From Paramacrobiotus metropolitanus (taxonomy: Eukaryota; Tardigrada; Eutardigrada; Parachela; Macrobiotidae), in contig NW_026570328.1 in assembly GCF_019649055.1 (NCBI RefSeq), forward strand, positions 395,985 to 459,984: a stretch of 64,000 nt of DNA, in the 5' to 3' direction. This document shows positions 1 through 58,722 of this stretch, one piece after another; position 1 is the first letter of the stretch, and each line of letters starts with the position of its first letter. Position numbers and translations under genes: made by a program. A model generated the notes under the pieces. The model was not told the DNA's origin. It made no database searches and saw only the letters and a program-made list of their open reading frames with translations.

Positions 1-432
1 AGTACACAGCTTTATTACATTATTAATGATTCAACGTGGACAAGGCCAGCAAGTAACTGATGAAAAATGCCTTTATCACCTGGACGGATTTCCCGGCGAT
101 TTTAAGGGATCGTATTGAGAACTCCACACCAATAGTAACTTTGCTATCATGATTGAATTCGTTATGGCTAAACCGCGATAACAGATTCGTTTTCCCCACC
201 CCGGAATCCCCCGACGAGTACAACTGCAATAAATGAAATATGTTACACAAATACCGTTGCTTCTCCTTTTTAACTGTAACTGTCTGTAAGTATCTCAAAT
301 GGAACTTCTTGAAAGGAATCAAAAATCTTCTGATTTATAAGCCTTTCTTGCATTAACGTTAAATGTTGCATGTTGAGTTTTCGCGCACTAACCTTTAAAA
401 ATAAAATCATGTCCATCCTCTTCTCTGTTCAT
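1..432 (-). CDS. Rab11-like small GTPase, 5' part only (truncated by window edge)
   Basis: Vesicle-traffic GTPase of the Rab11 type (recycling endosome). Two exons are visible on the minus strand. Exon 1 is 393-432 and encodes [13 protein letters not shown], ending in a GTTAGT donor. Exon 2 is 80-223, with a TTGCAG acceptor and a GTGATA donor. It carries the P-loop GDSGVGKT, then NLLSRF, NEFN and the switch I core TIGVEF, the order and spacing of Rab11. The rest (WDTAG, NKxD, CxC tail) lies beyond position 1. The P-loop ends in Thr where Rab11 has Ser. Joining exon 1 to exon 2 gives the expected V-V-L-V-G start only if a run of five G (plus-strand C at 207-212) is read as four, so there is either a one-base assembly error or a real frameshift. 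The transposon at 459 begins 26 bp upstream of the ATG. Confidence 0.8.
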
Positions 433-452: not shown

Positions 453-458
453 GACCTG
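453..458. repeat. Left target-site duplication, GACCTG
   Basis: GACCTG directly precedes the element terminus AGAAGAGTAACGGG at 459. The same six bases in the same orientation follow the other terminus at 19010-19015. A 6-bp duplication is the hallmark of Polinton/Maverick integration. Confidence 0.92.
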
Positions 459-1532
459 AGAAGAGTAACGGGTGATATGGAATAAAATCTATTTTACATA
501 TTTTATCTAATTTTTATATTTATTACGTAAAATAACTATCTAACTTATATTTTATTACTACTTTTGCTCTTCTCTGAGTTAAGATTGTGTTTTAATATGA
601 ATGCTCGTGATTTGACATATGTCTTTTACATAGGCATCTCATTATGCGCAAGTTTGGGTGAAGATTGTGTTTTAATGATTCTCGTACACATGTTTCCTTG
701 GCGTCTGATCTGTCAAAACATGCTCATTCCTTAATAACTCACAACACACAGTTTCTTTAGATATCTAACTGCTGGTATACTCTCATGTCGTATCCTAGGG
801 GGTACAGATTACTTACAAACATCTGAACATTTTGTTTCTACCTACTCATATTATTCGTACAGTTCTGCAACATACTCATTTCTAAGATACATCTGACTGT
901 TGTATGTATGCCAGTTTCCATAAACATCTCATTGTCCGCAAGTGTGTAAGGCCCAAAACGTTTTTACAGTGCGTATCTTTCACAAACATCTGACGAGCTG
1001 CGTGCACTTTTGTTGCACGTTATTTGTTTGATTGTGCACAATTTTCATGAACTTTGCGATTTTAGCACACGTATCGCAATTGTCATCTGTGATCTGTCAG
1101 TTTCTGTAGACATTTAACCACGCACACGTCCATACGCTATTCTTCGTGCCTCTAAGTCTCGACATTTCTGTCGACAACTGCATTTCTATCTGAACGGGCG
1201 TCGTACAATTGCCATATTAAACAGTACACTTGCACTGAAGACTCTAAAACCATCCATCAAACTGCATGTTCTGCCCTTTGGCAACTTAGACTACACAATT
1301 TTTCATAGGAAACTGTAAAAAAGTTGCAGTAGATGTGAAGCTGCATAGCTTATAGTAAAAGGTATTTAGCACGCTTTGTATTCCATTCTCGTCTCATTGA
1401 TTGTTTTGTTCCTAAAGGTTTTCTTTTTTTGTTTTCGAGCTAAGCATTTATGTGTTAACTGGATTACTGGCCGTTACCCGCCATTTGCTATTGTTGTGCT
1501 TGCGGATTACTAATCGCAGGTAAGCAGAAACC
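459..1532. other. Left subterminal non-coding region of the element
   Basis: No ORF; AT-rich outermost 150 bp. It holds repeated words. CATCTCATT followed by a CGCAAGT-like word occurs near 634 and 926. Related CATCTGA words lie near 821, 888 and 983. AGATTGTGTTTTAAT occurs twice (near 583 and 662). Such subterminal repeats could bind integrase or replication proteins, which is inference. A GCAGGTAAGC string sits just before the polymerase ATG at 1533. Confidence 0.5.
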
Positions 1533-4500
1533 ATGTTTAACTTGGATGAAGTTTTGCGCTTTTATGCCGAGTTTCTGCAACAATGGTTGCATGAAAACTG
1601 GCCAGAAAAGGCAGAAGGGCTGTTTTCTCTCGATGCAATTGCCAATCTGTACGGGAAACAAAAGCTCATTCGTGAATACCGGGAAGCTAACGCCATACAG
1701 AGCGGTGGATCAAGGGACTGGAATCCACAGACTGGACAAAGTACTTTACTCTGGAAAAGATCAACGAAAAGCAAACAAAGAAATTTTCAACATCGGAAAT
1801 CACGTATCGCGTTAAAATCGAAAACCTCAATATGAAATTCGATCCTGTCACCTCAATGGAAGCAATGCCCAAAGTGTTCGAAGCTATATTCAGTGTCATT
1901 ACGAAAGAATTCGGACCAGACGACAGAATCGTCATCCTTCTCTCCAGTCATACACTCAACCGCAAAGCTGATCTTCATATGAAAAGGTTACAAGATTTCA
2001 AGATTGACGACCTTATGGATATGATGGTCATGATTAATTCAAGCAACTCATTCTGCATCGACGAAAGTTTTCAAATTACAATTGTTCGGACCGTAATACC
2101 GGCTGGTGGAAGAAGAAGAAAACATATCCATACTACGGTTGACCGAAAACGATTCAGCTCGTCTATTGTTACAGTGACAACAGGAAACAACCTTTGCTTA
2201 CCTGCAGCATTGGCGCTCGGTCATTTCAGAAACACTCATGATGTCAGCGGCAAAGACAAGATGAAATGGAAAGCTTTAACTAATCCTAGAGGGCGTAAGT
2301 TGGAAAAACTCGCGTGTCAGTTGGTCCAAGATGCGGGTCTCACTATTGGAAAAATGTTTGGGTTGGAAGATTTGCCGGCTTTTCAACGCGTTTTAAAGTG
2401 TCAAGTCAAGGTTATTTCTGTGCAGGAAGGAAACACTCTTATCGCTCAAGTGCCGGAGAAGAAGAAACCGGGAATGAAGCAGATTTACTTAATGTACGAT
2501 AAAAATCATTTCGATCTGATAACTAAACCATCTGGATACCACATGCAGAGTTATTATTGCACAAACTGCGATCAAGGATACGGCCGAAAGACAGATCATC
2601 GCTGTGAACAGAGATGCAACATGTGTTATCGCAGTAAAAGCGATTGCAAGGCCAGTGACCCAAAGTTATGCCCCGATTGTGGACGAACTTTCACCAACAA
2701 AGAGTGCTTTGATGTGCACAAGACTTTACGAAAAAATGGAAGGACGCTTTGCGAGGATCTTTTCATCTGCTCCAAGTGCAACAAGTTTGTGAATATGCTC
2801 AATCGCCCGGATCAGGTTCATAACTGTGACGAAATGTACTGCTCAACCTGCAAAGACTGGGTGCCTCAAAATTCGCATAAATGTTACTTCCAACCTCTTG
2901 AACCAGAAGAATTGGATGCTAATCCGAAGTACATTTTCTTTGATTTCGAAACTTACACGTCGGTCGATGGTACTCACATTCCAAACTACGTCGTCGCGCA
3001 GTATTGCTGCGGAAAGGAATATCGTTTTCCTCCTGATGGTACTCCTCTAGCCGGTTATGATGTCATCGCAAACTTTTGCAAATGGCTTTTCCGTGAAGAG
3101 CATCGTGGCTACACGATAATTGCGCACAATCTGCGAGGATACGATGGACATTTCATTTTGGCCCACATGATAGACAATAACTTGAAGCCGGACATTCTTT
3201 GCCGTGGTAGTCAGCTGCTGAATATTCGCTACAAAGCTTTGGACATGAACGCCGTGGATACGCTTAACTTTGTGCAGCTGGCTTTGTCTAAATTTCCTAA
3301 AGCGGTCGGTCTTAAATCTGATGAGAAGAAAGGTGACTTCCCTCACAAAATTAATCAGCCGGAAAATTGGGATAAAATTATTCCCTTCCCAAACCCGTCT
3401 TCTTACGGTATCGAAGCAATGTGTGCCGCCAAGCAGGTCGAATTCTTTAAATGGTATACAGGCGAAAAAACAAGAAGCAAGGACGTTTTTGACTTTCGGC
3501 AGCAGTTAACCAGCTACTGTTCAATGGACGTGTCAGTTTTGCGGAAATGTGCCTTAAAATTCCGAGATGATTTTATGGCTCTAGCGTGCATTGATCCCTT
3601 TAAATCCGTAACCATTGCTTCAGCTTGTTTGAAATTTTTTCGAACTTTTAATCTCCGGAAGGAAGAAATCGGAGTCATTTCAGCTCACGGTTACCAAACC
3701 AACAGAATAACCAGCATGGAAGCAACTCAGTGGCTGACCTGGGTTAACAAAACAGAAGCTGATTGGCGAATCGAGCATGGGCGAAATGGAAAAGAGAAAC
3801 GTATTAATGATTATTTTGTGGACGGCTACGATCAAGTTACCAACACGGTTTACGAATACAACGGATGCGTTTTTCATGGACATCCGGACTGCACCAACGC
3901 AAATGACCGTTCACCTTTTTCAAACAAGACTATGCAAGAAGTTTACGAAGAATACCGGATCAAAGTTTGTTCTATAAAAGCTCGGGGCTTCAACTTTGTG
4001 GAAATGTGGTCATGCCAGTGGCGCGAGCAGTTAAAAGATCCAAGCATTCGGCAGTATATGAACGATATGTCCCTCCGCAGTCCTCTTCAACCAAAAGAAG
4101 CATTTAAAGGCGGCCGTACTAACGCAAACAGGCTACTTTACGAATGCGGTCCGAATGAGAAGATCCATCACTATGATATCGTCTCTTTGTATTCTTATGT
4201 CAACAAGAATTGTGTGTATCCAATCGGGCATCCGAAAATTATAACAGCAGACTTTAAGGATATAAGCGAATATTTTGGATTTGTAAAGTGTACAGTGCTT
4301 GCGCCGGGACAGTGCTTATTTCCTGTTTTGCCTGCAACTATAAATGGAAAGTTAATCTTCGCACTCTGCAGTAAATGTGCAGAGCTTCGGCAAAACGATT
4401 TTTGCACGCATGGCGACAAGGAGCGATTGCTGGAAGGTGTGTGGACTACTCCCGAACTGCATCATGCGATTTTACGTGGGTACAAAGTTGTTGCTGTTCA

Positions 4501-5464
4501 TGAAGTCTGGCATTGGGAAATACGGAAAGAAAAATTGTTTGAAGACTTTGTTAACACATTCCTCAAAGAAAAAATTCAGGCAAGTGGATGGCCAAGTAAC
4601 TGCACCACTGAAGCGGAACGGTTGGAGTTTGTCATAAAAGTGAAGGACGTGGAAGGTATTGAACTGGATTCCTCGCAAATCGAAGACAATCCAGGCCGAA
4701 AAGCAGTTGCAAAGTTGATGCTGAACTCATTCTGGGGCAAATTCGGACAAAATGACAATCTTCATCAGACGAAAATTTTCTTCAAGCCGAAAGATTACTA
4801 TGACTTCCTCGTATCAAAATCTACCTGGATCCACAATGTCCATATCTTCAGTCCTGAATGTGTCATGGCAACTATTTCCAAAATCGACGACTATCTAGAA
4901 GGATCGTACACCGCCAATATCCCTATCGCAGCCTTTACGACGAGTTATGCCCGGCTGAAACTTTTGGATATGCTTGAGAAGTTAGGTGAACGAGTACTTT
5001 ATTTTGACACAGATTCCGTTATTTTTGTTCAGCGGTCAGGCGAGTGGCAGCCACCAACAGGTACGATGCTTGGAGAATGGAGCAATCAGTTAGAATCGGG
5101 AGAGAGTCATATTGTCAAGTTTATTTCTCTGGGGCCCAAAGTTTATTATTACGAAACAGATACAGGAAGGATAGAAAGTAAAATTAAAGGCTTTACTCAA
5201 AATGGATATACGGAGAATATCCTAGCCGATTCTGGGGAAGGGCTGGTTCAAACAGGCCAGAGTATGGACTACAACCTTTGGAAATCGCTCTTGAAGAATG
5301 ATGGCCAAACGGTGCGCGTTGTCTATCCCGAAACCATCAAAAGAAATGTCAACACTCATGAAATCAGCACCGTTCAACTGACGAAAACTCTCAGGCGAGT
5401 ATACGATAAACGGATGCTGTTGGATGATTATAGTACTTTACCGTTTGGAACTCGCATGGAGTAA
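1533..5464 (+). CDS. Polinton protein-primed DNA polymerase B, left copy (one frameshift near the N-terminus)
   Basis: Replicates linear DNA from a terminal protein primer. The ATG at 1533 has a good context (AAACCATG). Frame is lost near 1713-1716, where a G run is one base shorter than in the right copy; the remaining 1,210-codon ORF is open from 1832 to the stop at 5464. Residue numbers refer to that ORF. A Cys/His-rich zinc-binding region spans about 240-345 (several CxxC). The exonuclease motifs follow: FDFETY (~370), HNLRGYDGHF (~435), and YCSMD (~562). Polymerase motif A is DIVSLYS (~782; Ser where SLYP is usual), motif B KLMLNSFWG (~961) and motif C YFDTDSVIF (~1057). The long insert between motifs A and B fits the TPR regions of protein-primed enzymes. 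The length fits Polinton PolB. The catalytic residues look complete; only the N-terminal ~100 residues are out of frame. Confidence 0.9.
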
Positions 5465-5675
5465 GTTAGAGTGTTCTTTCTGTACTTGTACAAAAAAAAA
5501 ATTCGCACTATTTTTTTTTGCCAGCTAGCGCGCCATATTCGAAGGGATGCGCAGGGACATGATGTCGTTGGAGCAAGTGTCGTAGTTTTCGATTTTGCAG
5601 TTTGTAACTGTTAGCATATAATAGAAGCCAAAAAAAAAACATTTACATAAAAAAAGCAAAAAAAAAAGAGGGCGA

Positions 5676-5882
5676 ATGCCCCAAATCTGTACCGGCTTTA
5701 GCTTGTCTGCGGCCAGGTTGAAATCGTTATGGCTTTGGGCTTCGTCGCTGAAACAAAAGCCGCTAGCGGTAATATTTGGTGCTGCTGTATTATGGTGTTA
5801 TATAACTGCATGGAAGCAACCACAAAATATGATGAAACGGGGAGTAAATTGGCAGTGCAAGGTACTGCATCGAATATACTAG
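5676..5882 (+). CDS. Short hydrophobic ORF in left arm (68 aa), doubtful
   Basis: Unrecognised. The 68-residue ORF begins MPQICTGF and has a hydrophobic stretch (PLAVIFGAAVLWCYITAW) that could be one membrane span. It is preserved without change in the right arm at 13595-13801 (minus). An antisense ORF of 93-101 codons covers the same DNA (5698-6003 minus; 13498-13779 plus), so the conservation may reflect recent arm duplication rather than coding selection. It lies about 210 bp downstream of polB. Confidence 0.25.
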   Translation: MPQICTGFSLSAARLKSLWLWASSLKQKPLAVIFGAAVLWCYITAWKQPQNMMKRGVNWQCKVLHRIY

Positions 5883-6261
5883 AAGAATAATGTGAGATAC
5901 CAAAATCGGAAGAATGGTTAGCAAATGCGACCAGATGATGCGCGTTCCGTTCATTGAGCTTGTATTCAAATCGAAACATATGTAAAAATCTACGGAAACT
6001 CATATGAAAAACTTCCGTTTTGCAACATTTCGCTGCAAAAACTTGTAGTTTTCCGTAGTCAAAAAAAACGGAGGCTTTCGTTTTGGGATTCTCATTGACT
6101 TAACATACATTTTCGTAACTTTTAGGGAGTTTTTCGTTTTCACTTTTGGGAGTTTTTTGCTTCAGTTTCTTTGTTTTGTAAAACTTCCATTTCCGCACTA
6201 GCAAAAGAAATAAATATATTGACTTACTTTCACGCTTTTTGAAGAACGACAATCCATCTTA

Positions 6262-7015
6262 CGCACATGTTCAAAGTGGCATTTCTAACTTGCATGTTTG
6301 CCGTGACATTTTCCAACTTCGTTGCATGTTTGCCGTTACATTTCCAACTTTGTTGCATGTTTGACATGACATTTTCAACTTTCTTGCATGTTTGACGTGA
6401 CGTTTCTAACTTTATTGCATGTTTGCCGTGACATTTCCAACTTTCTTGTATGTTTCACGTGACAGTTCTAACTTCCCTGCATATTTGCCGTGACATTCCT
6501 AACTTTCTTAGATGTTTCACGTGACATTTCTAACTTTGTTTCATATTTGACATGACAATCCCAACTTTCTTGCATGTTTGCCGTGACATTTCCAACTTTT
6601 CTGCATGTTTCCCGTGACATTTCTAACTTCACTGCATGTTTGCCGTGACATTCCTAAATTTTCTGCATATTTGGCGTGACATTTCTAACTTCACTGCATG
6701 TTTGCGTTTGCCGTGACATTTCTAACTTCACTGCATGTTTGCCGTGACATTTCTAACTTCACTGCATGTTTGCCGTGACATTCCTAAATTTTCTGCATGT
6801 TTGGCATTTCTAACTTTCGCGTTGCATTTCAACTTTGTTGCATGTTTGACGTGACATTCCCAACTTTTTTGCATATTTGCCGTGACATTCCCAACATTGT
6901 TGCATGTTTGCCGTGAAATTTCCAACTTTGTTGCATGTTTGCCATGACATTTCCAACTATGTAGCACTTGTGACGTGACATTCCCAAGTCCCTTGCATAT
7001 GTGACACGACATTTT
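6262..7015. repeat. Tandem array of ~31-bp units, left arm
   Basis: Over twenty degenerate copies of a unit of the form GCATGTTTGCCGTGACATTT followed by CCAACTTTGT. Variation is mostly point changes in the middle of the unit. Open frames across it (for example 6728-7027 minus) arise from the period and are not genes. Confidence 0.9.
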
Positions 7016-7144
7016 ATGCTTTCCCACAAGTCAAGTATAATATTTTTGGCTTCTTTAAATGTTTTGGTACGGCACTCTGAACTTCCAACAGGTTTAGTGT
7101 GATATGCTCAAGTTTTGCAATCGTTTCTTTTTTCGATATGAATT

Positions 7145-8347
7145 AAATGCATGTTTGGCGCAAGTCAGCTGATTACACATCAGTAGGTTACACTAATGAT
7201 GGGAACGGAATGCACACCTGGCGTCAGTTAGACGTTGGAATGCGGTGATTATCGCAAATGTAAGGGGACACCGACAGTAATCATGGGAACGGAATGCATG
7301 TTTGGCGCAAGTCAGCTAATTACACATCAGTAGGTTACACTAATGATGGGAACGGAATGCACACTTGGCGCCAGTTAGAAGTTGGAATGTGGTAATTATC
7401 GCAAATGTAAGGGGGCACCGACAGTAATCATGGGAACGGAATGCACGTTTGGCGTCAGTCAGACAATTACACATCGTTAAGTTACACTAATGATGGGAAC
7501 AGAATGCACACCTGGCGTCAGTTAGACGTTGGAATGCGGTGTTTATCGCAAATGTAAGGGGACACCGACAGTAATCATGGGAACGGAATGCATGTTTGGC
7601 GCAAGTCAGCTAATTACACATCAGTAGGTTACACTAATGATGGGAACGGAATGCACACTTGGCGCCAGTTAGAAGTTGGAATGTGGTAATTATCGCAAAT
7701 GTAAGGGGGCACCGACAGTAATCATGGGAACGGAATGCACGTTTGGCGTCAGTCAGACAATTACACATCGTTAAGTTACACTAATGATGGGAACGGAATG
7801 CACACCTGGCGTCAGTTAGACGTTGGAATGCGGTGATTATCGCAAATGTAAGGGGACACCGACAGTAATCATGGGAACGGAATGCATGTTTGGCGTCAGT
7901 CAGATAATTACACATCGTTAAGTTACACTAATGATGGGAACGGAATGCACACCTGGCGTCAGTTAGACGTTGGAATGCGGTGATTATCGTAAATGTAAGG
8001 GGGGCACCGACAATAAACATGAGAACGCAATGCATGTTTGGCGCAAGTCAGCTAATTATACATCAGCAGGTTACACTAATGATGGGAACGGAATGCACAC
8101 CTGGCGTCAGTTAGAAGTTGGAATGTGGTAATTATCGCAGTTGTATGGTTACACCGACATTAATCATGGGAACGGAATGCATGTTTGGCGCCAGTCATAT
8201 AATTGCACATCGTTAAGTTACACTAATCATGGGAACGGAATGCACACCTGGCGTCAGTTAGACGTTAGAATCTGGTAATTATCGCAAATGTAAGAAGACA
8301 CCGACAGTAATCATGGAAACGGAATGCTTGTTTTGCGCAAGTCAGGT
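7145..8347. repeat. Tandem array of ~146-bp compound units, left arm
   Basis: About eight copies of a compound unit made of two related halves, each opening with GGGAACGGAATGCA. One half (~84 bp) continues CACCTGGCGTCAGTTAGACG and ends near ACACCGACAGTAATCAT. The other (~63 bp) continues TGTTTGGCGCAAGTCAG and ends near TTACACTAATGAT. The copies are very similar, more so than in the 31-bp array. Confidence 0.9.
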
Positions 8348-8369
8348 GCATTCCCGCTCACTTTTCCTT

Positions 8370-9115
8370 ATGCCTGATGCGACATTTTAGACTTTCTTAC
8401 AAGTTTGGCGTGACATTCTCAAGAGTTTCGAAGTTATGCTATCATGTCTGGCACCAGTGCAGGTGCACTCCCATTCTCTTGCTTATGCTTGACAAAGCTT
8501 TCTTAACTTTCTTACGTGGTCGACGCGACATTCACAACTCTCGTACATGTTTGACGTGGCACTCCCAACTTTCTTACATGATTGATTGCTTTCTTGCATG
8601 TTTGACAAGGCATTCACCACTTTCTTGCTTTTTGACATGGCATTCTTAATAATTTTGTTATACATGACGCCAGCGTAGTTACATCCACAACTTTCCCGCA
8701 TGATTGACGCGACATTCTCGGGAATTTCGTTGCTATGTCAACATCCCAGTAAAGGCATTCCCACTCACTTTTCTTTATGCCTGGCGCGTCTCCACAAGAG
8801 TGGCGCGACAGCTTGAAGTCTTTTGTCGTTATGTCAATAAGCTTGGCGTTAGTTCAGATGCATTCCCACTGTCTTTGTTATGTCTGACGCGGCATTCTCA
8901 GCTTTATCATAGGCTTGACGCAACATTAATAAATTTCTCACACGTTTTCGCGCGTTATTCTCGACTTTCTTATCACTGTGACGCGATATTCTAATCTTTA
9001 TACATGTATGACTCGACATTCTCAATTTTATCTCGTGCTGGGCACTGCAATTTCACATGTTTTGACACGACATTCAACTTTCCAGTTTGTGCATTATGTT
9101 TCGGAAACGTTCAGG
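8370..9115. repeat. Degenerate GACGCGACATTCTCA-type array, left arm
   Basis: Loosely periodic repeats around the words TTGACGCGACATTCTCA and CTTTCTTACATG, plainly related to the 31-bp array but much more diverged. ORFs here (8377-8649, 8704-8994) lack protein character and appear in mirror in the other arm. Confidence 0.7.
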
Positions 9116-9334
9116 ATGATGCATACTGTGTACAACTTTGCCATTCCTGAAGCAAATTTTTTTTTTTGACCTTTCATGACCTTTTTTGCATGATGTCTGA
9201 AGTCGCAACCGATTGAGCATTTGGCACAACTTTGCATTCTCAACATTTCTACACAAAAATGTATAGGTGACCTTTCCGTGACCTTTCTGCATGGTGCCTG
9301 AAGTCGGAACCCATTGGGTATTTGGCACAACTTT

Positions 9335-9497
9335 GCATGTGAGTTAACTCTTTGTTCAAAAGGATTCAGACGTTGTCGTAATCATCCATTGCTTCCATTC
9401 AGTACTGTCGCGTTTTCAGCAGGACAGTACTGAATGGAAGCAATGGATGATTACGGCAACGTCTGAATCCTTTTGAACAAAGAGTTAACTCACATGC
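9335..9497. repeat. 75-bp hairpin at the spacer/left-arm junction
   Basis: 9335-9409 and 9423-9497 are inverted copies with one mismatch, separated by the 13-nt loop GCGTTTTCAGCAG. The hairpin centre (9416) is not the centre of the large palindrome (about 9718), so this is a second, independent inverted duplication. Confidence 0.92.
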
Positions 9498-10098
9498 TTT
9501 AGTGTCAACATCTTCCTGGCCCATAGCATCGCAGACTTTGACGTTGCCGTAATCATCCATTGTTTCGATTCAGTGCTGGCCTCTCGATCTTTTTGATAAT
9601 TATGACCAGAGGCAAATTTTGAACAAAGTTCGAATTGAAAATAATAAAAAACGCAAATAATTTGGTTTGAGAGTGTTACTTTGGCTTGTTCAAGATGCAA
9701 AGTTGTACTGAATACCCCAACAAAACCGACTTCAGACATGAAAAAAAAAATTTAGGAAAGGTCGCACAAAAATTTTACTACAGGATTGTCGAGGAGGCAA
9801 AATTATACTGAATGCACAAACAAAACCGACTTCAGACACAATGCAGAAAGGTTAAAAAAAGGTCACAAAAAAAAAAGTTCTGCATAAAAATTTTCTGGAT
9901 GCAAAGTTGTACCAATGCCTAATCGGTTGCGACTTCAGAAACCATGTTCAAAGGTCACGGAAAGGTCACCTGTGGATTTTTGTGTAGAAATGTTTAGGAT
10001 GCAAAGTTGTGCCAATTGTCCAATGGGTTCCGACTTCAGACATCATGCAGAAAGGTCACAAAAAGGTCACCTATAAATTGTGTGTAGAAAGGTTGAGG
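9339..10098. other. Asymmetric central spacer of the palindrome (760 bp)
   Basis: Unique to the centre. It holds the inner part of a strong hairpin (9335-9497) and then a stretch with a partial third copy of the hairpin arm (near 9538-9575). After about 9740 come diverged ~90-110-bp repeats built on GATGCAAAGTTGTGCCAA and CCGACTTCAGACA, which continue into the right arm to about 10270; their mirror is at 9150-9338. No gene. Confidence 0.75.
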
Positions 10099-10329
10099 AT
10101 GCAAAGTTGTGCCAAATACCCAATGGGTTCCGACTTCAGGCACCATGCAGAAAGGTCACGGAAAGGTCACCTATACATTTTTGTGTAGAAATGTTGAGGA
10201 TGCAAAGTTGTGCCAAATGCTCAATCGGTTGCGACTTCAGACATCATGCAAAAAGGGTCATGAAAGGTCAAAAAAAAAAATTTGCTACAGGAATGGCAAA
10301 GTTGTACACAGTATGCATCATCATGAACG

Positions 10330-11065
10330 TTTCCAAAACATAATGCACAAACTGGAAAGTTGAATGTCGTGGCAAAACATGTGAAATTGCAGTGCCCAGC
10401 ACGAGATAAAATTGAGAATGTCGAGTCATACATGTATAAAGATTAGAATATCGCGTCACAGTGATAAGAAAGTCGAGAATAACGCGCGAAAACGTGTGAG
10501 AAATTTATTAATGTTGCGTCAAGCCTATGATAAAGCTGAGAATGCCGCGTCAGACATAACAAAGACAGTGGGAATGCATCTGAACTAACGCCAAGCTTAT
10601 TGACATAACGACAAAAGACTTCAAGCTGTCGCGCCACTCTTGTGGAGACGCGCCAGGCATAAAGAAAAGTGAGTGGGAATGCCTTTACTGGGATGTTGAC
10701 ATAGCAACGAAATTCCCGAGAATGTCGCGTCAATCATGCGGGAAAGTTGTGGATGTAACTACGCTGGCGTCATGTATAACAAAATTATTAAGAATGCCAT
10801 GTCAAAAGCAAGAAAGTGGTGAATGCCTTGTCAAACATGCAAGAAAGCAATCAATCATGTAAGAAAGTTGGGAGTGCCACGTCAAACATGTACGAGAGTT
10901 GTGAATGTCGCGTCGACCACGTAAGAAAGTTAAGAAAGCTTTGTCAAGCATAAGCAAGAGAATGGGAGTGCACCTGCACTGGTGCCAGACATGATAGCAT
11001 AACTTCGAAACTCTTGAGAATGTCACGCCAAACTTGTAAGAAAGTCTAAAATGTCGCATCAGGCA
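10330..11065. repeat. Degenerate GACGCGACATTCTCA-type array, right arm
   Basis: Mirror of 8370-9115. Confidence 0.7.
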
Positions 11066-11089
11066 TAAGGAAAAGTGAGCGGAATGCAC

Positions 11090-12292
11090 CTGACTTGCGC
11101 AAAACAAGCATTCCGTTTCCATGATTACTGTCGGTGTCTTCTTACATTTGCGATAATTACCAGATTCTAACGTCTAACTGACGCCAGGTGTGCATTCCGT
11201 TCCCATGATTAGTGTAACTTAACGATGTGCAATTATATGACTGGCGCCAAACATGCATTCCGTTCCCATGATTAATGTCGGTGTAACCATACAACTGCGA
11301 TAATTACCACATTCCAACTTCTAACTGACGCCAGGTGTGCATTCCGTTCCCATCATTAGTGTAACCTGCTGATGTATAATTAGCTGACTTGCGCCAAACA
11401 TGCATTGCGTTCTCATGTTTATTGTCGGTGCCCCCCTTACATTTACGATAATCACCGCATTCCAACGTCTAACTGACGCCAGGTGTGCATTCCGTTCCCA
11501 TCATTAGTGTAACTTAACGATGTGTAATTATCTGACTGACGCCAACCGTGCATTCCGTTCCCATGATTACTGTCGGTGTCCCCTTACATTTGCGATAATC
11601 ACCGCATTCCAACGTCTAACTGACGCCAGGTGTGCATTCCGTTCCCATCATTAGTGTAACTTAACGATGTGTAATTGTCTGACTGACGCCAACCGTGCAT
11701 TCCGTTCCCATGATTACTGTCGGTGCCCCCCTTACATTTGCGATAATTACCACATTCCAACTTCTAACTGGCGCCAAGTGTGCATTCCGTTCCCATCATT
11801 AGTGTAACCTACTGATGTGTAATTAGCTGACTTGCGCCAAACATGCATTCCGTTCCCATGATTACTGTCGGTGTCCCCTTACATTTGCGATAAACACCGC
11901 ATTCCAACGTCTAACTGACGCCAGGTGTGCATTCTGTTCCCATCATTAGTGTAACTTAACGATGTGTAATTGTCTGACTGACGCCAAACGTGCATTCCGT
12001 TCCCATGATTACTGTCGGTGCCCCCTTACATTTGCGATAATTACCACATTCCAACTTCTAACTGGCGCCAGTGTGCATTCCGTTCCCATCATTAGTGTAA
12101 CCTACTGATGTGTAATTAGCTGACTTGCGCCAAACATGCATTCCGTTCCCATGATTACTGTCGGTGTCCCCTTACATTTGCGATAATCACCGCATTCCAA
12201 CGTCTAACTGACGCCAGGTGTGCATTCCGTTCCCATCATTAGTGTAACCTACTGATGTGTAATCAGCTGACTTGCGCCAAACATGCATTTAA
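11090..12292. repeat. Tandem array of ~146-bp compound units, right arm
   Basis: Mirror of 7145-8347 with the same two-part unit and a similar copy number. Confidence 0.9.
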
Positions 12293-12424
12293 TTCATATC
12301 GAAAAAAGAAACGATTGCAAAACTTGAGCATATCACACTAAACCTGTTGGAAGTTCAGAGTGCCGTACCAAAACATTTAAAGAAGCCAAAAATATTATAC
12401 TTGACTTGTGGGAAAGCATAAAAT

Positions 12425-13215
12425 GTCGTGTCACATATGCAAGGGACTTGGGAATGTCACGTCACAAGTGCTACATAGTTGGAAATGTCATGCCAAACAT
12501 GCAACAAAGTTGGAAATATCACGGCAAACATGCAACAATGTTGGAAATGTAACGGTAAACATGCAAGAAAGTTGGGATTGTCATGTCAAATATGCAACAA
12601 AAGTTAGAAATGCAACGCCAAACATGCAGAAAATTTGGGAATGTCACGCCAAACATGCAGAAAATTTAGGAATGTCACGGCAAACATGCAGTGAAGTTAG
12701 AAATGTCACGGCAAACATGCAGTGAAGTTAGAAATGTCACGCCAAACATGCAGAAAATTTAGGAATGTCACGGCAAACATGCAGTGAAGTTAGAAATGTC
12801 ACGCCAAACATGCAGAAAATTTAGGAATGTCACGGCAAACATGCAGTGAAGTTAGAAATGTCACGGGAAACATGCAGAAAAGTTGGAAATGTCACGGCAA
12901 ACATGCAAGAAAGTTGGGATTGTCATGTCAAATATGAAACAAAGTTAGAAATGTCACGTGAAACATCTAAGAAAGTTAGGAATGTCACGGCAAATATGCA
13001 GGGAAGTTAGAACTGTCACGTGAAACATACAAGAAAGTTGGAAATGTCACGGCAAACATGCAATAAAGTTGAAACGTCACGTCAAACATGCAAGAAAGTT
13101 GAAAATGTCATGTCAAACATGCAACAAAGTTGGAAATGTAACGGCAAACATGCAACGAAGTTGGAAAATGTCACGGCAAACATGCAAGTTAGAAATGTCA
13201 CTTTGAACATGTGCG
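12425..13215. repeat. Tandem array of ~31-bp units, right arm
   Basis: Mirror of 6262-7015, but somewhat longer and with a different order of variant units (a repeated pair with CAGAAAATTTAGGAATGTCA is expanded). The two arms have therefore diverged by unit turnover. Confidence 0.9.
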
Positions 13216-13594
13216 TAAGATGGATTGTCGTTCTTCAAAAAGCGTGAAAGTAAGTCAATATATTTATTTCTTTGCTAGTGCGGAAATGGAAGTTTTACAA
13301 AACAAAGAAACTGAAGCAAAAAACTCCCAAAAGTGAAAACGAAAAACTCCCTAAAAGTTACGAAAATGTATGTTAAGTCAATGAGAATCCCAAAACGAAA
13401 GCCTCCGTTTTTTTTGACTACGGAAAACTACAAGTTTTTGCAGCGAAATGTTGCAAAACGGAAGTTTTTCATATGAGTTTCCCGTAGATTTTTACATATG
13501 TTTCGATTTGAATACAAGCTCAATGAACGGAACGCGCATCATCTGGTCGCATTTGCTAACCATTCTTCCGATTTTGGTATCTCACATTATTCTT

Positions 13595-13801
13595 CTAGTA
13601 TATTCGATGCAGTACCTTGCACTGCCAATTTACTCCCCGTTTCATCATATTTTGTGGTTGCTTCCATGCAGTTATATAACACCATAATACAGCAGCACCA
13701 AATATTACCGCTAGCGGCTTTTGTTTCAGCGACGAAGCCCAAAGCCATAACGATTTCAACCTGGCCGCAGACAAGCTAAAGCCGGTACAGATTTGGGGCA
13801 T
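13595..13801 (-). CDS. Short hydrophobic ORF in right arm (68 aa), doubtful
   Basis: Identical translation to 5676-5882, in the mirror position downstream of the right polymerase copy. Same caveats. Confidence 0.25.
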   Translation of the reverse strand: MPQICTGFSLSAARLKSLWLWASSLKQKPLAVIFGAAVLWCYITAWKQPQNMMKRGVNWQCKVLHRIY

Positions 13802-14011
13802 TCGCCCTCTTTTTTTTTGCTTTTTTTATGTAAATGTTTTTTTTTTGGCTTCCTATTATATGCTAACAGTTACAAACTGCAAAATCGAAAACTACGACAC
13901 TTGCTCCAACGACATCATGTCCCTGCGCATCCCTTCGAATATGGCGCGCTAGCTGGCAAAAAAAAATAGTGCGAATTTTTTTTTGTACAAGTACAGAAAG
14001 AACACTCTAAC

Positions 14012-17000
14012 TTACTCCATGCGAGTTCCAAACGGTAAAGTACTATAATCATCCAACAGCATCCGTTTATCGTATACTCGCCTGAGAGTTTTCGTCAGTT
14101 GAACGGTGCTGATTTCATGAGTGTTGACATTTCTTTTGATGGTTTCGGGATAGACAACGCGCACCGTTTGGCCATCATTCTTCAAGAGCGATTTCCAAAG
14201 GTTGTAGTCCATACTCTGGCCTGTTTGAACCAGCCCTTCCCCAGAATCGGCTAGGATATTCTCCGTATATCCATTTTGAGTAAAGCCTTTAATTTTACTT
14301 TCTATCCTTCCTGTATCTGTTTCGTAATAATAAACTTTGGGCCCCAGAGAAATAAACTTGACAATATGACTCTCTCCCGATTCTAACTGATTGCTCCATT
14401 CTCCAAGCATCGTACCTGTTGGTGGCTGCCACTCGCCTGACCGCTGAACAAAAATAACGGAATCTGTGTCAAAATAAAGTACTCGTTCACCTAACTTCTC
14501 AAGCATATCCAAAAGTTTCAGCCGGGCATAACTCGTCGTAAAGGCTGCGATAGGGATATTGGCGGTGTACGATCCTTCTAGATAGTCGTCGATTTTGGAA
14601 ATAGTTGCCATGACACATTCAGGACTGAAGATATGGACATTGTGGATCCAGGTAGATTTTGATACGAGGAAGTCATAGTAATCTTTCGGCTTGAAGAAAA
14701 TTTTCGTCTGATGAAGATTGTCATTTTGTCCGAATTTGCCCCAGAATGAGTTCAGCATCAACTTTGCAACTGCTTTTCGGCCTGGATTGTCTTCGATTTG
14801 CGAGGAATCCAGTTCAATACCCTCCACGTCCTTCACTTTTATGACAAACTCCAACCGTTCCGCTTCAGTGGTGCAGTTACTTGGCCATCCACTTGCCTGA
14901 ATTTTTTCTTTGAGGAATGTGTTAACAAAGTCTTCAAACAATTTTTCTTTCCGTATTTCCCAATGCCAGACTTCATGAACAGCAACAACTTTGTACCCAC
15001 GTAAAATCGCATGATGCAGTTCGGGAGTAGTCCACACACCTTCCAGCAATCGCTCCTTGTCGCCATGCGTGCAAAAATCGTTTTGCCGAAGCTCTGCACA
15101 TTTACTGCAGAGTGCGAAGATTAACTTTCCATTTATAGTTGCAGGCAAAACAGGAAATAAGCACTGTCCCGGCGCAAGCACTGTACACTTTACAAATCCA
15201 AAATATTCGCTTATATCCTTAAAGTCTGCTGTTATAATTTTCGGATGCCCGATTGGATACACACAATTCTTGTTGACATAAGAATACAAAGAGACGATAT
15301 CATAGTGATGGATCTTCTCATTCGGACCGCATTCGTAAAGTAGCCTGTTTGCGTTAGTACGGCCGCCTTTAAATGCTTCTTTTGGTTGAAGAGGACTGCG
15401 GAGGGACATATCGTTCATATACTGCCGAATGCTTGGATCTTTTAACTGCTCGCGCCACTGGCATGACCACATTTCCACAAAGTTGTTTTTATAGAACAAA
15501 CTTTGATCCGGTATTCTTCGTAAACTTCTTGCATAGTCTTGTTTGAAAAAGGTGAACGGTCATTTGCGTTGGTGCAGTCCGGATGTCCATGAAAAACGCA
15601 TCCGTTGTATTCGTAAACCGTGTTGGTAACTTGATCGTAGCCGTCCACAAAATAATCATTAATACGTTTCTCTTTTCCATTTCGCCCATGCTCGATTCGC
15701 CAATCAGCTTCTGTTTTGTTAACCCAGGTCAGCCACTGAGTTGCTTCCATGCTGGTTATTCTGTTGGTTTGGTAACCGTGAGCTGAAATGACTCCTGATT
15801 TCTTCCTTCCGGAGATTAAAAGTTCGAAAAATTTCAAACAAGCTGAAGCAATGGTTACGGATTTAAAGGGATCAATGCACGCTAGAGCCATAAAATCATC
15901 TCGGAATTTTAAGGCACATTTCCGCAAAACTGACACGTCCATTGAACAGTAGCTGGTTAACTGCTGCCGAAAGTCAAAACGTCCTTGCTTCTTGTTTTTT
16001 CGCCTGTATACCATTTAAAGAATTCGACCTGCTTGGCGGCACACATTGCTTCGATACCGTAAGAAGACGGGTTTGGGAAGGGAATAATTTTATCCCAATT
16101 TTCCGGCTGATTAATTTTGTGAGGGAAGTCACCTTTCTTCTCATCAGATTTAAGACCGACCGCTTTAGGAAATTTAGACAAAGCCAGCTGCACAAAGTTA
16201 AGCGTATCCACGGCGTTCATGTCCAAAGCTTTGTAGCGAATATTCAGCAGCTGACTACCACGGCAAAGAATGTCCGGCTTCAAGTTATTGTCTATCATGT
16301 GGGCCAAAATGAAATGTCCATCGTATCCTCGCAGATTGTGCGCAATTATCGTGTAGCCACGATGCTCTTCACGGAAAAGCCATTTGCAAAAGTTTGCGAT
16401 GACATCATAACCGGCTAGAGGAGTACCATCAGGAGGAAAACGATATTCCTTTCCGCAGCAATACTGCGCGACGACGTAGTTTGGAATGTGAGTACCATCG
16501 ACCGACGTGTAAGTTTCGAAATCAAAGAAAATGTACTTCGGATTAGCATCCAATTCTTCTGGTTCAAGAGGTTGGAAGTAACATTTATGCGAATTTTGAG
16601 GCACCCAGTCTTTGCAGGTTGAGCAGTACATTTCGTCACAGTTATGAACCTGATCCGGGCGATTGAGCATATTCACAAACTTGTTGCACTTGGAGCAGAT
16701 GAAAAGATCCTCGCAAAGCGTCCTTCCATTTTTTCGTAAAGTCTTGTGCACATCAAAGCACTCTTTGTTGGTGAAAGTTCGTCCACAATCGGGGCATAAC
16801 TTTGGGTCACTGGCCTTGCAATCGCTTTTACTGCGATAACACATGTTGCATCTCTGTTCACAGCGATGATCTGTCTTTCGGCCGTATCCTTGATCGCAGT
16901 TTGTGCAATAATAACTCTGCATGTGGTATCCAGATGGTTTAGTTATCAGATCGAAATGATTTTTATCGTACATTAAGTAAATCTGCTTCATTCCCGGTTT

Positions 17001-17935
17001 CTTCTTCTCCGGCACTTGAGCGATAAGAGTGTTTCCTTCCTGCACAGAAATAACCTTGACTTGACACTTTAAAACGCGTTGAAAAGCCGGCAAATCTTCC
17101 AACCCAAACATTTTTCCAATAGTGAGACCCGCATCTTGGACCAACTGACACGCGAGTTTTTTTCCAACTTACGCCCTCTAGGATTAGTTAAAGCTTTCCA
17201 TTTCATCTTGTCTTTGCCGCTGACATCATGAGTGTTTCTGAAATGACCGAGCGCCAATGCTGCAGGTAAGCAAAGGTTGTTTCCTGTTGTCACTGTAACA
17301 ATAGACGAGCTGAATCGTTTTCGGTCAACCGTAGTATGGATATGTTTTCTTCTTCTTCCACCAGCCGGTATTACGGTCCGAACAATTGTAATTTGAAAAC
17401 TTTCGTCGATGCAGAATGAGTTGCTTGAATTAATCATGACCATCATATCCATAAGGTCGTCAATCTTGAAATCTTGTAACCTTTTCATATGAAGATCAGC
17501 TTTGCGGTTGAGTGTATGACTGGAGAGAAGGATGACGATTCTGTCGTCTGGTCCGAATTCTTTCGTAATGACACTGAATATAGCTTCGAACACTTTGGGC
17601 ATTGCTTCCATTGAGGTGACAGGATCGAATTTCATATTGAGGTTTTCGATTTTAACGCGATACGTGATTTCCGATGTTGAAAATTTCTTTGTTTGCTTTT
17701 CGTTGATCTTTTCCAGAGTAAAGTACTTTGTCCAGTCTGTGGATTCCAGTCCCCTTGATCCACCGCTCTGTATGGCGTTAGCTTCCCGGTATTCACGAAT
17801 GAGCTTTTGTTTCCCGTACAGATTGGCAATTGCATCGAGAGAAAACAGCCCTTCTGCCTTTTCTGGCCAGTTTTCATGCAACCATTGTTGCAGAAACTCG
17901 GCATAAAAGCGCAAAACTTCATCCAAGTTAAACAT
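14012..17935 (-). pseudogene. Polinton DNA polymerase B, right copy (several frameshifts)
   Basis: Inverted copy of 1533-5464, nearly identical at the base level. The N-terminal frame that is broken on the left is intact here, but the gene falls into four ORFs: 17069-17935, 15957-17144, 15442-16014 and 14012-15499. Breaks relative to the left copy are a +2 in an A run near 17155, a -1 in a T run near 15978, a compensating -1/+1 pair near 15798-15830, and a 10-11-bp deletion near 15487. Motifs B and C (KLMLNSFWG, YFDTDSVIF) are in the last ORF and the exonuclease motif FDFETY is in the second. Three of the breaks are in homopolymers, so some may be assembly errors; the 10-11-bp deletion is not of that kind. 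Confidence 0.85.
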
Positions 17936-19009
17936 GGTTTCTGCTTACCTGCGATTAGTAATCCGCAAGCACAACAATAGCAAATGGCGGGTAACGGCCA
18001 GTAATCCAGTTAACACATAAATGCTTAGCTCGAAAACAAAAAAAGAAAACCTTTAGGAACAAAACAATCAATGAGACGAGAATGGAATACAAAGCGTGCT
18101 AAATACCTTTTACTATAAGCTATGCAGCTTCACATCTACTGCAACTTTTTTACAGTTTCCTATGAAAAATTGTGTAGTCTAAGTTGCCAAAGGGCAGAAC
18201 ATGCAGTTTGATGGATGGTTTTAGAGTCTTCAGTGCAAGTGTACTGTTTAATATGGCAATTGTACGACGCCCGTTCAGATAGAAATGCAGTTGTCGACAG
18301 AAATGTCGAGACTTAGAGGCACGAAGAATAGCGTATGGACGTGTGCGTGGTTAAATGTCTACAGAAACTGACAGATCACAGATGACAATTGCGATACGTG
18401 TGCTAAAATCGCAAAGTTCATGAAAATTGTGCACAATCAAACAAATAACGTGCAACAAAAGTGCACGCAGCTCGTCAGATGTTTGTGAAAGATACGCACT
18501 GTAAAAACGTTTTGGGCCTTACACACTTGCGGACAATGAGATGTTTATGGAAACTGGCATACATACAACAGTCAGATGTATCTTAGAAATGAGTATGTTG
18601 CAGAACTGTACGAATAATATGAGTAGGTAGAAACAAAATGTTCAGATGTTTGTAAGTAATCTGTACCCCCTAGGATACGACATGAGAGTATACCAGCAGT
18701 TAGATATCTAAAGAAACTGTGTGTTGTGAGTTATTAAGGAATGAGCATGTTTTGACAGATCAGACGCCAAGGAAACATGTGTACGAGAATCATTAAAACA
18801 CAATCTTCACCCAAACTTGCGCATAATGAGATGCCTATGTAAAAGACATATGTCAAATCACGAGCATTCATATTAAAACACAATCTTAACTCAGAGAAGA
18901 GCAAAAGTAGTAATAAAATATAAGTTAGATAGTTATTTTACGTAATAAATATAAAAATTAGATAAAATATGTAAAATAGATTTTATTCCATATCACCCGT
19001 TACTCTTCT
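17936..19009. other. Right subterminal non-coding region of the element
   Basis: Near-identical inverted copy of 459-1532 with the same repeated CATCTCA/CATCTGA words. No ORF. Confidence 0.5.
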
Positions 19010-19015
19010 GACCTG
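19010..19015. repeat. Right target-site duplication, GACCTG
   Basis: Perfect copy of 453-458, directly after the right terminus (...TACTCTTCT ending at 19009). The flanking DNA beyond the two copies is unrelated, as expected for an insertion. Confidence 0.92.
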
Positions 19016-54200: not shown

Positions 54201-55099
54201 TCATCTGTTTTGGCCTGGGCGCTCCGCCCTGCTCTTCCTCGATTCCTTGGCCGCTTGTTTGCGGAGCCGCAGCGCATACGGTCGTGCGCCGGGTGCTATG
54301 TCATCCGACATCCAAGGTTCAGGGCGACGAGTTAAATCCGCTAGGCGCGTCTTTCTCGCGGTACCAGCTGATGAATCGGTTGCGTCGTCGCTGGGATCTA
54401 TGTGATCCTCACGAAAGGCATACTTTGTCGCATACCGTTCGTGGGTGTACAGCAAGTCACGCATCCAGACAGCTAGATAACACTTCTCATCGGTGTGCCG
54501 AGTTGGGCTACGAGGGTCTCCACAGCCGCTGGTATCGCTTCATTGTGGTACAGTCCGTACAGGGTGTAATGGCAAAAGTAATTGCCGAGTCGAGCTGCGA
54601 ATGAATCGCAGGAATGCCGTGGCTCCGTCCTGGGCCATGTCGACTTCTCCTTCCGGAAGATGCTGGGTTAAATCCAGTGCTGCCTGAGCCGCGGTGATTA
54701 CAAAGGCTGGGTGTGCGTCCGTGATGACGAACTGGGCAACACTCTCCAACTCGTCATGGAGTATTCCTGAGCTCCTAGTTGGCTCGCATCGTGTTCCTGT
54801 CCTGTACAATGGCACATTCAGCAAGACTGGTCGGTCATCGACGGCAACGCATTCGATCTGGTGTACGGGTGTTCAACATTCGGCGCTGTGTGCGCGTTCA
54901 TGTTGAAGTCAGACCGCCATTGATGCTGTTCGAACAGCGCCTGATATCCGGATCGGACGAGGAATTGACGAAGGTTTTCACCATCCGCCAGATTTGTGGT
55001 CGGTAACCGTTCCTCGTAATTCATGACGTTCATAATGTGGTTCGTCCTTTCGGTAGGGTGGCATGACGACCTCGATTCCTTGTTGTCGAGCTCGGTCAT
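54201..55099 (-). pseudogene. Coding-like fragments downstream of the 403-codon segment
   Basis: Three overlapping minus-strand frames carry protein-like sequence in turn: 54818-55099 (...NLADGENLRQFLVRSGYQAL...), 54540-54824 (...SVAQFVITDAHPAFVITAAQ...) and 54201-54464 (...RDLLYTHERYATKYAFRED...). Frame changes near 55010 and 54835 suggest single-base indels in one ancestral frame. No family recognised. Confidence 0.45.
54394..54408. other. Hairpin, 5-bp stem, TATGT loop
   Basis: GGATC-TATGT-GATCC. Same stem as 62673-62687 with a different loop base; lies in coding-like frame (D-H-I-D). Confidence 0.7.
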
Positions 55100-56225: not shown

Positions 56226-56279
56226 CTGTTAAAACAAAAGTCAGCAAACCGTTTCTCGGTTGCATCCTATAATTTACAC
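56226..56279 (-). other. Possible 54-nt intron inside the island
   Basis: AT-rich stretch with a donor-like GTGTAAAT and an acceptor-like TTTTGTTTTAACAG, standing out from the GC-rich surroundings. Neither donor choice (GTGTAA or GTAAAT) puts the upstream coding-like frame in phase with the CQQC frame, so it is a candidate only. Confidence 0.3.
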
Positions 56280-57114: not shown

Positions 57115-57232
57115 CCATCCGGCGTCATATTCCGAGACACTCGGCTTGGGTTTCAGCCGATTTAATGCCGGTATACTTCAACCTAACGTTGACCAGTGGG
57201 GAATGTCGTCTGGTAGGACTTCTATCATATCC

Positions 57233-58036: not shown

Positions 58037-58225
58037 GTCGCGTTCTGCGTTAGTCGTCTGGAGAGTATGTTGCTCGAACCAGGAGCGCGATTCGTTCGCC
58101 TATCCTATACGTGATAATTTCATCGATGTTCCCTTCTTGTCCATGTACATCACGTTGTATACACGGGCAATTTGGACCAGAGTCGATCCGCGGGGTTCCG
58201 AATGTATCCGATACACCGCGCAATT

Positions 58226-58636
58226 CTAGTCGGTGTGTCGTCTGCGTTCTTGCCGCTGCACTTTAAGTGATTTGATGAGGTCCGGTTGGATAATTTCGGC
58301 CATCCGTCCCCATTGTCGGTGGACGGCGACTGCTAATCCGTAATCGAGGGTCCAGGCGACGATTTGCATCATGAGTTGATGCGTTAACCACTTTCCGGTT
58401 TCGCCTTCGACTTGTATGTTATTCGACAAGTCTTGTACCAGGGATTGGTAGATGTCCCTGCCATTTTCCTTGGCACTCCGAATACTACGGACGACTTCGA
58501 CATGTACGCGGACTGTGCGGATTAATGTGTCGACCGGGTCCTCCGGCTGTTCGTCCGGAAGACGCTCGCGTACATCGTCTGGAGCTGGCCACTGGGATTC
58601 GTCGGTGTCCGCTCCATGGTTAAACATTTCTTTCAT
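58226..58636 (-). CDS. Helical segment (136 codons), unknown
   Basis: Alpha-helix-rich sequence (VDTLIRTVRVHVEVVRSIRS, GKWLTHQLMMQIVAWTLDYG, AVHRQWGRMAEIIQPDLIKS). The evenly spaced hydrophobic residues suggest a folded helical domain, possibly a capsid- or Gag-like helix bundle; this is a guess from composition. Confidence 0.4.
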   Translation of the reverse strand: MKEMFNHGADTDESQWPAPDDVRERLPDEQPEDPVDTLIRTVRVHVEVVRSIRSAKENGRDIYQSLVQDLSNNIQVEGETGKWLTHQLMMQIVAWTLDYGLAVAVHRQWGRMAEIIQPDLIKSLKVQRQERRRHTD

Positions 58637-58722
58637 GTCGCCTTTAAATCCTTCATAGGGATCCCCATCTCCGTGGTCGGAGATTGAATCCTTATCTTCA
58701 ATGTCCGAGGCCTGGTCGGATT

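What the first reader, a model, noticed from the sequence alone, without database searches (positions are those of the whole stretch)
459..19009. A Polinton that is one giant palindrome, with 8.9-kb inverted arms and intact 6-bp target-site duplication
The sequence shows identical termini (AGAAGAGTAACGGG), GACCTG on both sides, and inverted homology along 96 percent of 18.5 kb. Polinton TIRs are normally below about 1 kb. The homology stops exactly at the duplication and the two flanks differ, so this is a bounded genomic insertion and not a mirrored read.
Basis: partly seen in the sequence, partly recalled or inferred. Interest (0 to 1): 0.85.

Follow-up and report, generated by a model that had tools for sequence, protein, structure and literature searches.

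The report
Palindromic Polinton satellite in a tardigrade
A virus-like jumping gene in a tardigrade genome exists as two mirror-image copies of only its polymerase half, and this mirrored form sits at three separate places, which suggests that a truncated replication product became a jumping element of its own.

Summary
Confirmed: window 459-19009 is a bounded insertion with 8.9-kb inverted arms (98.9% identical), an off-symmetry 760-bp centre and a 6-bp duplication GACCTG. Host: the tardigrade Paramacrobiotus metropolitanus. It is not a one-off. C16 holds a second palindrome with its own duplication GGTGAG; C6 a third with one truncated arm. C108 and C6 share the one-sided centre except for about 160 nt missing in C6, so the palindrome moved as a palindrome. 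Inner arms change together: 63 of 71 variable columns set both C16 arms against the four C108 and C6 arms. It is not a complete Polinton: only polymerase B was found. Polintons of this genome carry integrase, short TIRs (about 190-250 bp in four examined), AGAAGA ends and 6-bp duplications. Best reading: a left-left copy-back product of protein-primed replication that became a satellite lineage using integrase in trans. Structure is well supported; the replication route is inferred. No palindromic Polinton appeared in the listings searched. New variant of a known kind.

The parts
453..458 (.). left target-site duplication GACCTG
   Evidence: sequence read directly
19010..19015 (.). right target-site duplication GACCTG
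   Evidence: sequence read directly
459..9338 (+). arm A, read from the L terminus AGAAGAGTAACGGG inward
   Evidence: inverted match 98.9% with arm B
10099..19009 (-). arm B, same L terminus, opposite strand
459..2858 (+). [quoted passage not shown]
1832..5464 (+). protein-primed-type DNA polymerase B, arm A copy, 1,210 aa open; an upstream 100-aa ORF at 1533-1835 is in another frame
   Evidence: ORFs; Pfam DNA_pol_B_2 E 7.7e-47; six motif strings located (their meaning recalled)
14012..17935 (-). same polymerase gene in arm B, split into four overlapping ORFs by small frame differences; whether it is broken in the animal cannot be told from this assembly
6290..7014 (+). 31-bp tandem array, arm A (arm B: 12448-13188)
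7146..8345 (+). 147-bp tandem array, 8.2 copies, arm A (arm B: 11090-12289)
9339..9497 (.). central small palindrome with a predicted loop of 7 nt
   Evidence: self-inverse match 93%; DNA folding -85.8 kcal/mol
9498..10098 (.). one-sided segment; from 9540 on it matches both sides of the C16 centre, so it was probably lost from arm A's side; shared with C6

Best explanation
The insertion is a non-autonomous Polinton derivative made of two inverted copies of the left, PolB-bearing end (an L-L palindrome). Inferred origin: during protein-primed strand-displacement replication of a linear Polinton, the growing or displaced strand switched back onto itself at a short inverted sequence now at the centre. 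That gave a molecule with two L ends and no right half. Supported by the shared one-sided centre of C108 and C6: the palindrome then became a lineage that moves as a palindrome, because both ends are usable termini and the unit carries the polymerase. Inferred: its integration (6-bp duplications, AGAAGA ends) is done in trans by integrase of complete Polintons in the same genome. Shown for C108, for C6 and for the inner arm of C16: the two arms stay alike while elements diverge. Inferred route for that: pairing of the two arms in a hairpin intermediate, or arm-arm gene conversion in the chromosome.
For: Two complete palindromes with different 6-bp duplications (C108 GACCTG, C16 GGTGAG) and a third, truncated one at C6. 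The 25-base L terminus with up to 3 mismatches occurs at 6 places in the genome: two in C108, two in C16, one in C6 (other arm truncated), one in C159 (reversed control 0). Inner arm and spacer match only in those three palindromes (40 of 40 and 14 of 14 matches listed). C6 and C108 share the small palindrome and the one-sided segment at 99%. Arms: C108 A-B 4 of 5,427 substitutions against 18-41 of 5,419-5,446 to full arms of other elements; C6 5 of 2,354 against 13-19 of 2,329-2,352. Inner arm: 6 of 977 within C108, 8 of 1,008 within C16, 72-77 of 963-969 between them. C159 has the same L end with a different right end, so an L-R form exists. The C16 centre is near-symmetric with an interior of 36 nt by my reading (sequence; fold). 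Polintons with PolB and integrase in the same genome have AGAAGA ends and 6-bp duplications. PolB dN/dS 0.10-0.14 between palindrome and single-copy lineages.
Against: No replication intermediate, terminal protein or movement was observed. The direct L-R parent of the arms was not found: C159 matches the arms closely only over the outer 2.4 kb, and the inner arm from window 8350 on has no match outside the palindromes. The palindrome termini share only AGAAGA(G) with the complete Polintons examined. The outer arms of C16 do not fit homogenisation well: they differ by 20 of 5,450, no less than one of them differs from a C6 arm (19 of 5,446), and 10 of the changes are private to one arm at positions 202-557. 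C6 lacks about 160 nt at the arm edge of the shared centre, so that edge is not identical to C108. Several C108/C6 differences shared by both arms lie in short tracts, so they may be few events. The assembly is Nanopore/Canu with read N50 about 17 kb, close to the element length.
Confidence: 0.63

Rival explanations
1. Assembly artefact: the assembler or haplotype merging folded a normal Polinton onto itself.
For: Nanopore/Canu/HaploMerger2 assembly, read N50 about 17 kb, so few reads span 18.5 kb; homopolymer indels between arms.
Against: Both unique flanks carry an L end and a matching 6-bp duplication at C108 and at C16; a false join would match by chance 1 in 4,096. Three loci share one centre with locus-specific detail. 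The DNA came from about 3,000 animals and the passages read mention no genome amplification.
Confidence: 0.06
2. Palindrome made in the chromosome after insertion, by host break repair or inverted duplication of a normal Polinton.
For: Inverted duplication by template switching is a known host process (PMC10766183 and PMC4689423, seen only as listing and abstract start).
Against: C108 and C6 are at different sites yet share the one-sided centre, and C108 and C16 have L ends on both sides inside their own duplications. In-place duplication would not give either.
Confidence: 0.06
3. TIR growth as in Foldback/Galileo elements: ordinary TIRs lengthened by recombination or gene conversion until they met, without replicative copy-back.
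For: Arms are homogenised in part; arrays inside the arms vary in copy number; long, internally repetitive TIRs are the hallmark of Galileo, resembling Foldback (abstract start of PMC3573991).
Against: C159 keeps different L and R ends that share about 90 bp at 89%, and none of the four Polintons whose TIRs were measured (C133, C4, C106, C50) has an intermediate length.
Confidence: 0.18
4. Independent palindromes: C16 and the C108/C6 pair each folded from separate L-R parents at the same hairpin-prone sequence.
For: C16 differs from C108/C6 by about 8% in the inner arm with both arms changed alike; C16 lacks the one-sided loss; the outer C16 arms are not clearly homogenised.
Against: C16 and C108 turn at related sequence and the inner arm has no match elsewhere in the genome, so no separate parent is visible. 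C108 and C6 at least share one event.
Confidence: 0.2
5. The palindrome is kept because its hairpin transcript silences Polintons, as Mu killer silences MuDR in maize (recalled).
For: Any transcript through the centre would be an 8.9-kb hairpin RNA with PolB sequence (from the structure); the genome has many Polinton integrases.
Against: No expression or small-RNA data here; repeated transposition of the palindrome needs no host benefit.
Confidence: 0.05

Closest known systems
Polinton/Maverick transposons (polintoviruses)
   Same: PolB of the DNA_pol_B_2 family, AGAAGA termini and 6-bp duplications like the Polintons examined in the same genome
   Different: no integrase, capsid, ATPase or protease found; inverted repeats 8.9 kb instead of about 0.2 kb; two left ends, no right end
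Hairpin and palindromic derivatives of protein-primed linear killer plasmids of yeast (Kikuchi et al. 1985; title seen in a reference list, paper not held, content recalled)
   Same: a protein-primed linear replicon reduced to an inverted repeat of one end
   Different: there extrachromosomal in yeast; here integrated at three chromosomal sites in an animal
Symmetric left-left adenovirus derivatives and copy-back defective genomes (recalled)
   Same: same L-L topology expected from strand switching in protein-primed replication
   Different: there seen in culture and packaged; here a germline element; no packaging shown
Foldback / Galileo elements (abstract start of PMC3573991)
   Same: very long, internally repetitive inverted repeats
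   Different: Galileo is classed with the P element; here PolB and Polinton-type ends
PolB-only relatives C159, C130, C36 in the same genome
   Same: PolB, tandem arrays, 6-bp duplications, no integrase found
   Different: distinct right half and right end; C159 has a RING/proline-rich ORF there; not palindromic

Membership tests
Polinton/Maverick | protein-primed-type DNA polymerase B | tested here: met
   DNA_pol_B_2 E 7.7e-47; 55% identical to the PolB of the C50 Polinton
Polinton/Maverick | 6-bp target-site duplication | tested here: met
   GACCTG at C108, GGTGAG at C16; not testable at C6; same length at C133, C4, C106, C50
Polinton/Maverick | retroviral-type (rve) integrase | tested here: not met
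   not found by Pfam on the ORFs scanned, by tblastn (controls), nor among 121 genome matches, a capped list
Polinton/Maverick | packaging ATPase, protease, capsid proteins | tested here: not met
   no tblastn hit at E <= 0.01 with 11 ORFs of the C50 Polinton. Limit: which of those ORFs are capsid genes is inferred, and the protease and ATPase matches there are under the curated cut-offs
Polinton/Maverick | terminal inverted repeats of about 0.1-1 kb (recalled) | tested here: not met
   8.9 kb against about 190-250 bp in four Polintons of the same genome
Copy-back / symmetric defective genome of a protein-primed replicon | two copies of the same end, other end missing | tested here: met
   two L termini in C108 and C16; R terminus at three places only, in C159, C130, C36
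Copy-back / symmetric defective genome of a protein-primed replicon | replicates by terminal-protein priming with a helper | not testable with these tools
   needs DNA and protein work on live animals
Foldback/Galileo | P-element-type transposase or family ends | tested here: inconclusive
   no transposase family among Pfam matches of 110 ORFs from palindrome and relatives; ends were not compared with Galileo

The most novel reading that the evidence does not exclude
An obligately palindromic satellite lineage of Polintons: every unit is a mirrored polymerase half, copied through a hairpin intermediate that keeps both arms alike, self-supplying the polymerase and borrowing integrase and perhaps capsids. 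It would be a germline-fixed counterpart of a copy-back defective genome.
Probability: 0.33. Interest if true: 0.8.

Novelty: new variant of a known kind. Interest (0 to 1): 0.6.

Why it matters
To my knowledge (recalled) protein-primed replication of animal Polintons is inferred from gene content and has not been watched. A mobile L-L palindrome is a product that such replication predicts, so these loci give a natural record of it and a way to test it by looking for linear and hairpin forms. They also suggest that Polintons have parasites of their own that keep the polymerase and drop the rest, and offer a case of arms evolving together inside a transposon.

Tried and rejected
Considered and set aside: mirrored read (flanks differ, duplications match); amplification chimera (no amplification of genomic DNA in the assembly passages read); decay of arm B as a biological signal (gaps mostly 1-2 nt, many in homopolymers). 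Weak or empty results: Rfam on the window, 0 matches; PolB in viral contigs, 1 stretch matched a pattern, none confirmed; PHROGs matched only the integrase ORF among 6 given; no match of the inner arm outside the three palindromes; R-R palindromes looked for by end motif and not seen (3 R ends, one in each of three single elements); whether the Ras-like exon left of the insertion continues to its right was not resolved. None of 14 Pox_A32 matches lay within 20 kb of a PolB match, by comparing the two lists; not pursued. The rve family search scored 150 of 1,154 candidates and probably lists mostly retrotransposons, so it was not used as evidence. A genome-wide list of PolB loci to look for further palindromes was not obtained, so how common palindromes are among Polintons here is unknown. 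Literature: searches were seen as listings with abstract starts (one search likewise, off target); passages were read in PMC8277472, PMC11191345, PMC4046053, PMC6431247, PMC4028283, PMC4443254 and PMC3185507; PMC554431 is not held.
Full report
What was checked. The window is C108:395985-459984 of a 169.8-Mb, 533-contig genome. The host is the tardigrade Paramacrobiotus metropolitanus: 6 of the 22 PolB relatives found, the best included, are named from that species, the C50 contig has the same length, 1,027,103, as the contig holding P0001, residues 127-1484 of P0001 are encoded there at 100%, and size and GC match the published assembly (170 Mb, 43.46%; window 43.45%). The published assembly has 684 contigs and the held one 533, so the two are not the same file. 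It was made from Nanopore rapid-kit reads and Illumina reads of about 3,000 animals with Canu, nanopolish, Pilon and HaploMerger2 (passages); read N50 about 17 kb (passages).

The observation. 459-9338 and 10099-19009 are inverted copies at 98.9%, with GACCTG on both sides. Twenty shuffles of one arm give at most 32.5 bits against 15,895. In the distal 5.49 kb the C108 arms differ by 2 substitutions and 10 gaps, 8 of 1-2 nt and 6 in homopolymers; in 3.54 kb of C16 by 14 substitutions and 9 gaps, all 1-2 nt and in homopolymers; in 1.98 kb of C6 by 1 substitution and 4 gaps, all 1-2 nt, 3 in homopolymers. I read most of these gaps as sequencing error, so the split of the polymerase gene in arm B (four ORFs) against one long ORF in arm A is not evidence of decay.

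Other copies. The outer 642 bases match six places over full length: two in C108, two in C16, one in C6, one in C159, besides 7 short partial matches. The 25-base terminus with up to 3 mismatches gives the same six and no others, reversed control 0. C16:781232-799536 is a second palindrome with ends inside GGTGAG duplications. C6:1974643-1992177 is a third, whose right arm stops at arm position 2383, so its duplication cannot be tested. Inner arm (window 8350-9338) and spacer match only these three: 40 of 40 and 14 of 14 matches listed.

The centre. In C16 the two sides pair almost to the middle, near 790,684, with an interior of 36 nt by my reading of the sequence; the side arms around it are 79.8% alike over 677 columns. 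In C108 the centre is a smaller palindrome, 9339-9497, followed by 601 bases on one side only, of which 9540 onward matches both sides of C16. C6 has the same small palindrome and one-sided segment, in the other orientation, at 99% over spacer positions 28-760. It differs at one edge: about 160 nt (the first 27 of the spacer and the adjoining arm, window 9207-9338) are missing, across a short overlap. A shared one-sided arrangement at two sites, absent from C16, means that C108 and C6 most simply descend from one palindrome that had already lost symmetry. Central losses are known to stabilise long palindromes (recalled).

Arms evolve together, with an exception. Over about 5.4 kb outside the arrays, substitutions are 4 of 5,427 between the C108 arms and 5 of 2,354 between the available C6 arms, against 18-41 of 5,419-5,446 between full arms of different elements and 13-19 of 2,329-2,352 for the short C6 arm. 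The C16 arms differ by 20 of 5,450, which is no less than C16 right against C6 left (19 of 5,446), and the left C16 arm has 10 private changes at 202-557, so the outer C16 arms do not show homogenisation. In the inner arm, 71 columns without gaps vary; 63 have both C16 arms against all four C108 and C6 arms. In the list I found no column in which two elements are both split between their arms. Alignment near positions 5166-5200 is poor.

What it lacks and where the lacking parts are. Pfam on 110 of 252 listed ORFs of >= 55 aa from the palindrome and the C159, C130 and C36 elements gave RING fingers and one PNKP-ligase match (2.5e-4) but no integrase, ATPase, protease or capsid; a closer look at 10 agrees. 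C50:661886-679719 is a complete-looking Polinton: PolB, rve integrase with chromodomain (rve 5.9e-13), a TBP-like protein (5.2e-27), protease and ATPase matches under cut-off, TIR about 190 bp at 86%, ends AGAAGA, duplication GGCATC. None of 11 ORFs other than PolB hits the window or the loci of the palindromes and single elements at E <= 0.01; with the same settings PolB hits 14 of these 19 targets and the 11 ORFs all find their own locus. The end motif AGAAGAGAAGTAGTAG... has 24 matches, of which C4, C104, C106, C133, C143, C49 and C69 form opposed pairs 19.0-20.5 kb apart, and C62 one 28.6 kb apart. Six of those seven pairs (not C69) enclose both a PolB match and an integrase match. The three examined have TIRs of about 245 bp and 6-bp duplications GATAGA, GTCACC and AATGTT. 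The C50 integrase has 121 matches in the genome (114 of 1,074 candidates scored, so a lower bound), none of those listed inside the palindromes or C159, C130, C36.

Relatives that are not palindromes. C159 (112845-133794) starts with the palindrome's L end and finishes with another end, inside GTCGCT duplications if one extra AGA unit is counted to its right end. It is a mosaic: 3 mismatches to arm A in the first 2,396 aligned bases, then 5.5-11.5% per 200 nt to 5.2 kb and more beyond, while it is 0.5% from C130 and 0.8% from C36 between 115.5 and 119.5 kb. So L ends appear to be exchanged between lineages inside PolB. C130 and C36 have duplications ACTGGT and GTTGGC. The C130 PolB-side end matches the end of the C133 Polinton at 94.8% over 581 columns. 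The extra AGA unit of C159 is what triplet slippage in protein priming would give (recalled from adenovirus); one case proves nothing.

Is the polymerase useful? dN/dS is 0.138 (C108A-C62, 1,203 codons, one stop codon skipped), 0.099 (C108A-C130, 1,206) and 0.106 (C108A-C159, 1,203). Selection acted on PolB along these lineages; how much of it acted inside the palindromes cannot be separated. Within palindromes there are too few changes: 6 against C16 right, 1 against C6 left.

Mechanism. Shown: L-L palindromes in three places, a shared one-sided centre in two, arms alike within C108 and C6 and in the inner arm of C16, no own integrase found, many Polintons with integrase in the genome. Inferred: origin by strand switching in protein-primed replication; movement as a palindrome with integrase in trans; homogenisation through a hairpin or by gene conversion. 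Known analogues are the hairpin killer-plasmid derivatives (recalled) and symmetric adenovirus derivatives (recalled).

Novelty. (listings with abstract starts, PMC CC-licensed papers) show no palindromic Polinton by title or abstract start, and one search finds two papers naming both Polinton and tardigrade, neither about this by title. That library leaves out most subscription journals. I rate it a new variant of a known kind.

Noticed in passing
G000:C159:112845-133794 (L016-L018): Mosaic element: outer 2.4 kb nearly identical to the palindrome L end, then like C130/C36 through its PolB and arrays, switching inside PolB.
   Followed up: partly
G000:C4, C104, C106, C133, C143, C49, C69: A family of 19.0-20.5-kb elements with near-identical end motifs in opposed pairs; three checked have intact 6-bp duplications.
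   Followed up: partly
G000, 121 matches: Polinton-type integrases are very numerous in this tardigrade, many in open frames.
   Followed up: no
L033:8472-9062 (C50 Polinton): A TATA-binding-protein-like gene (PF00352, E 5.2e-27) inside a Polinton.
   Followed up: no
window 54978-63977, minus strand: A run of seven ORFs of 151-403 aa; the five scanned have no Pfam match at 0.001.
   Followed up: no
L014:6329-8852 (C6 right arm): 17 copies of the 147-bp unit against about 6 in each C16 arm and 8 in each C108 arm.
   Followed up: no
L018:4333-5382 (C159 right half): Proline-rich ORF with a RING finger near the right end of C159.
   Followed up: no
window 23-322 and 20950-21639, minus strand: A Ras-like exon about 250 bp left of the insertion and a sulfate-transporter exon to its right; whether the insertion lies in a gene was not resolved.
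   Followed up: partly
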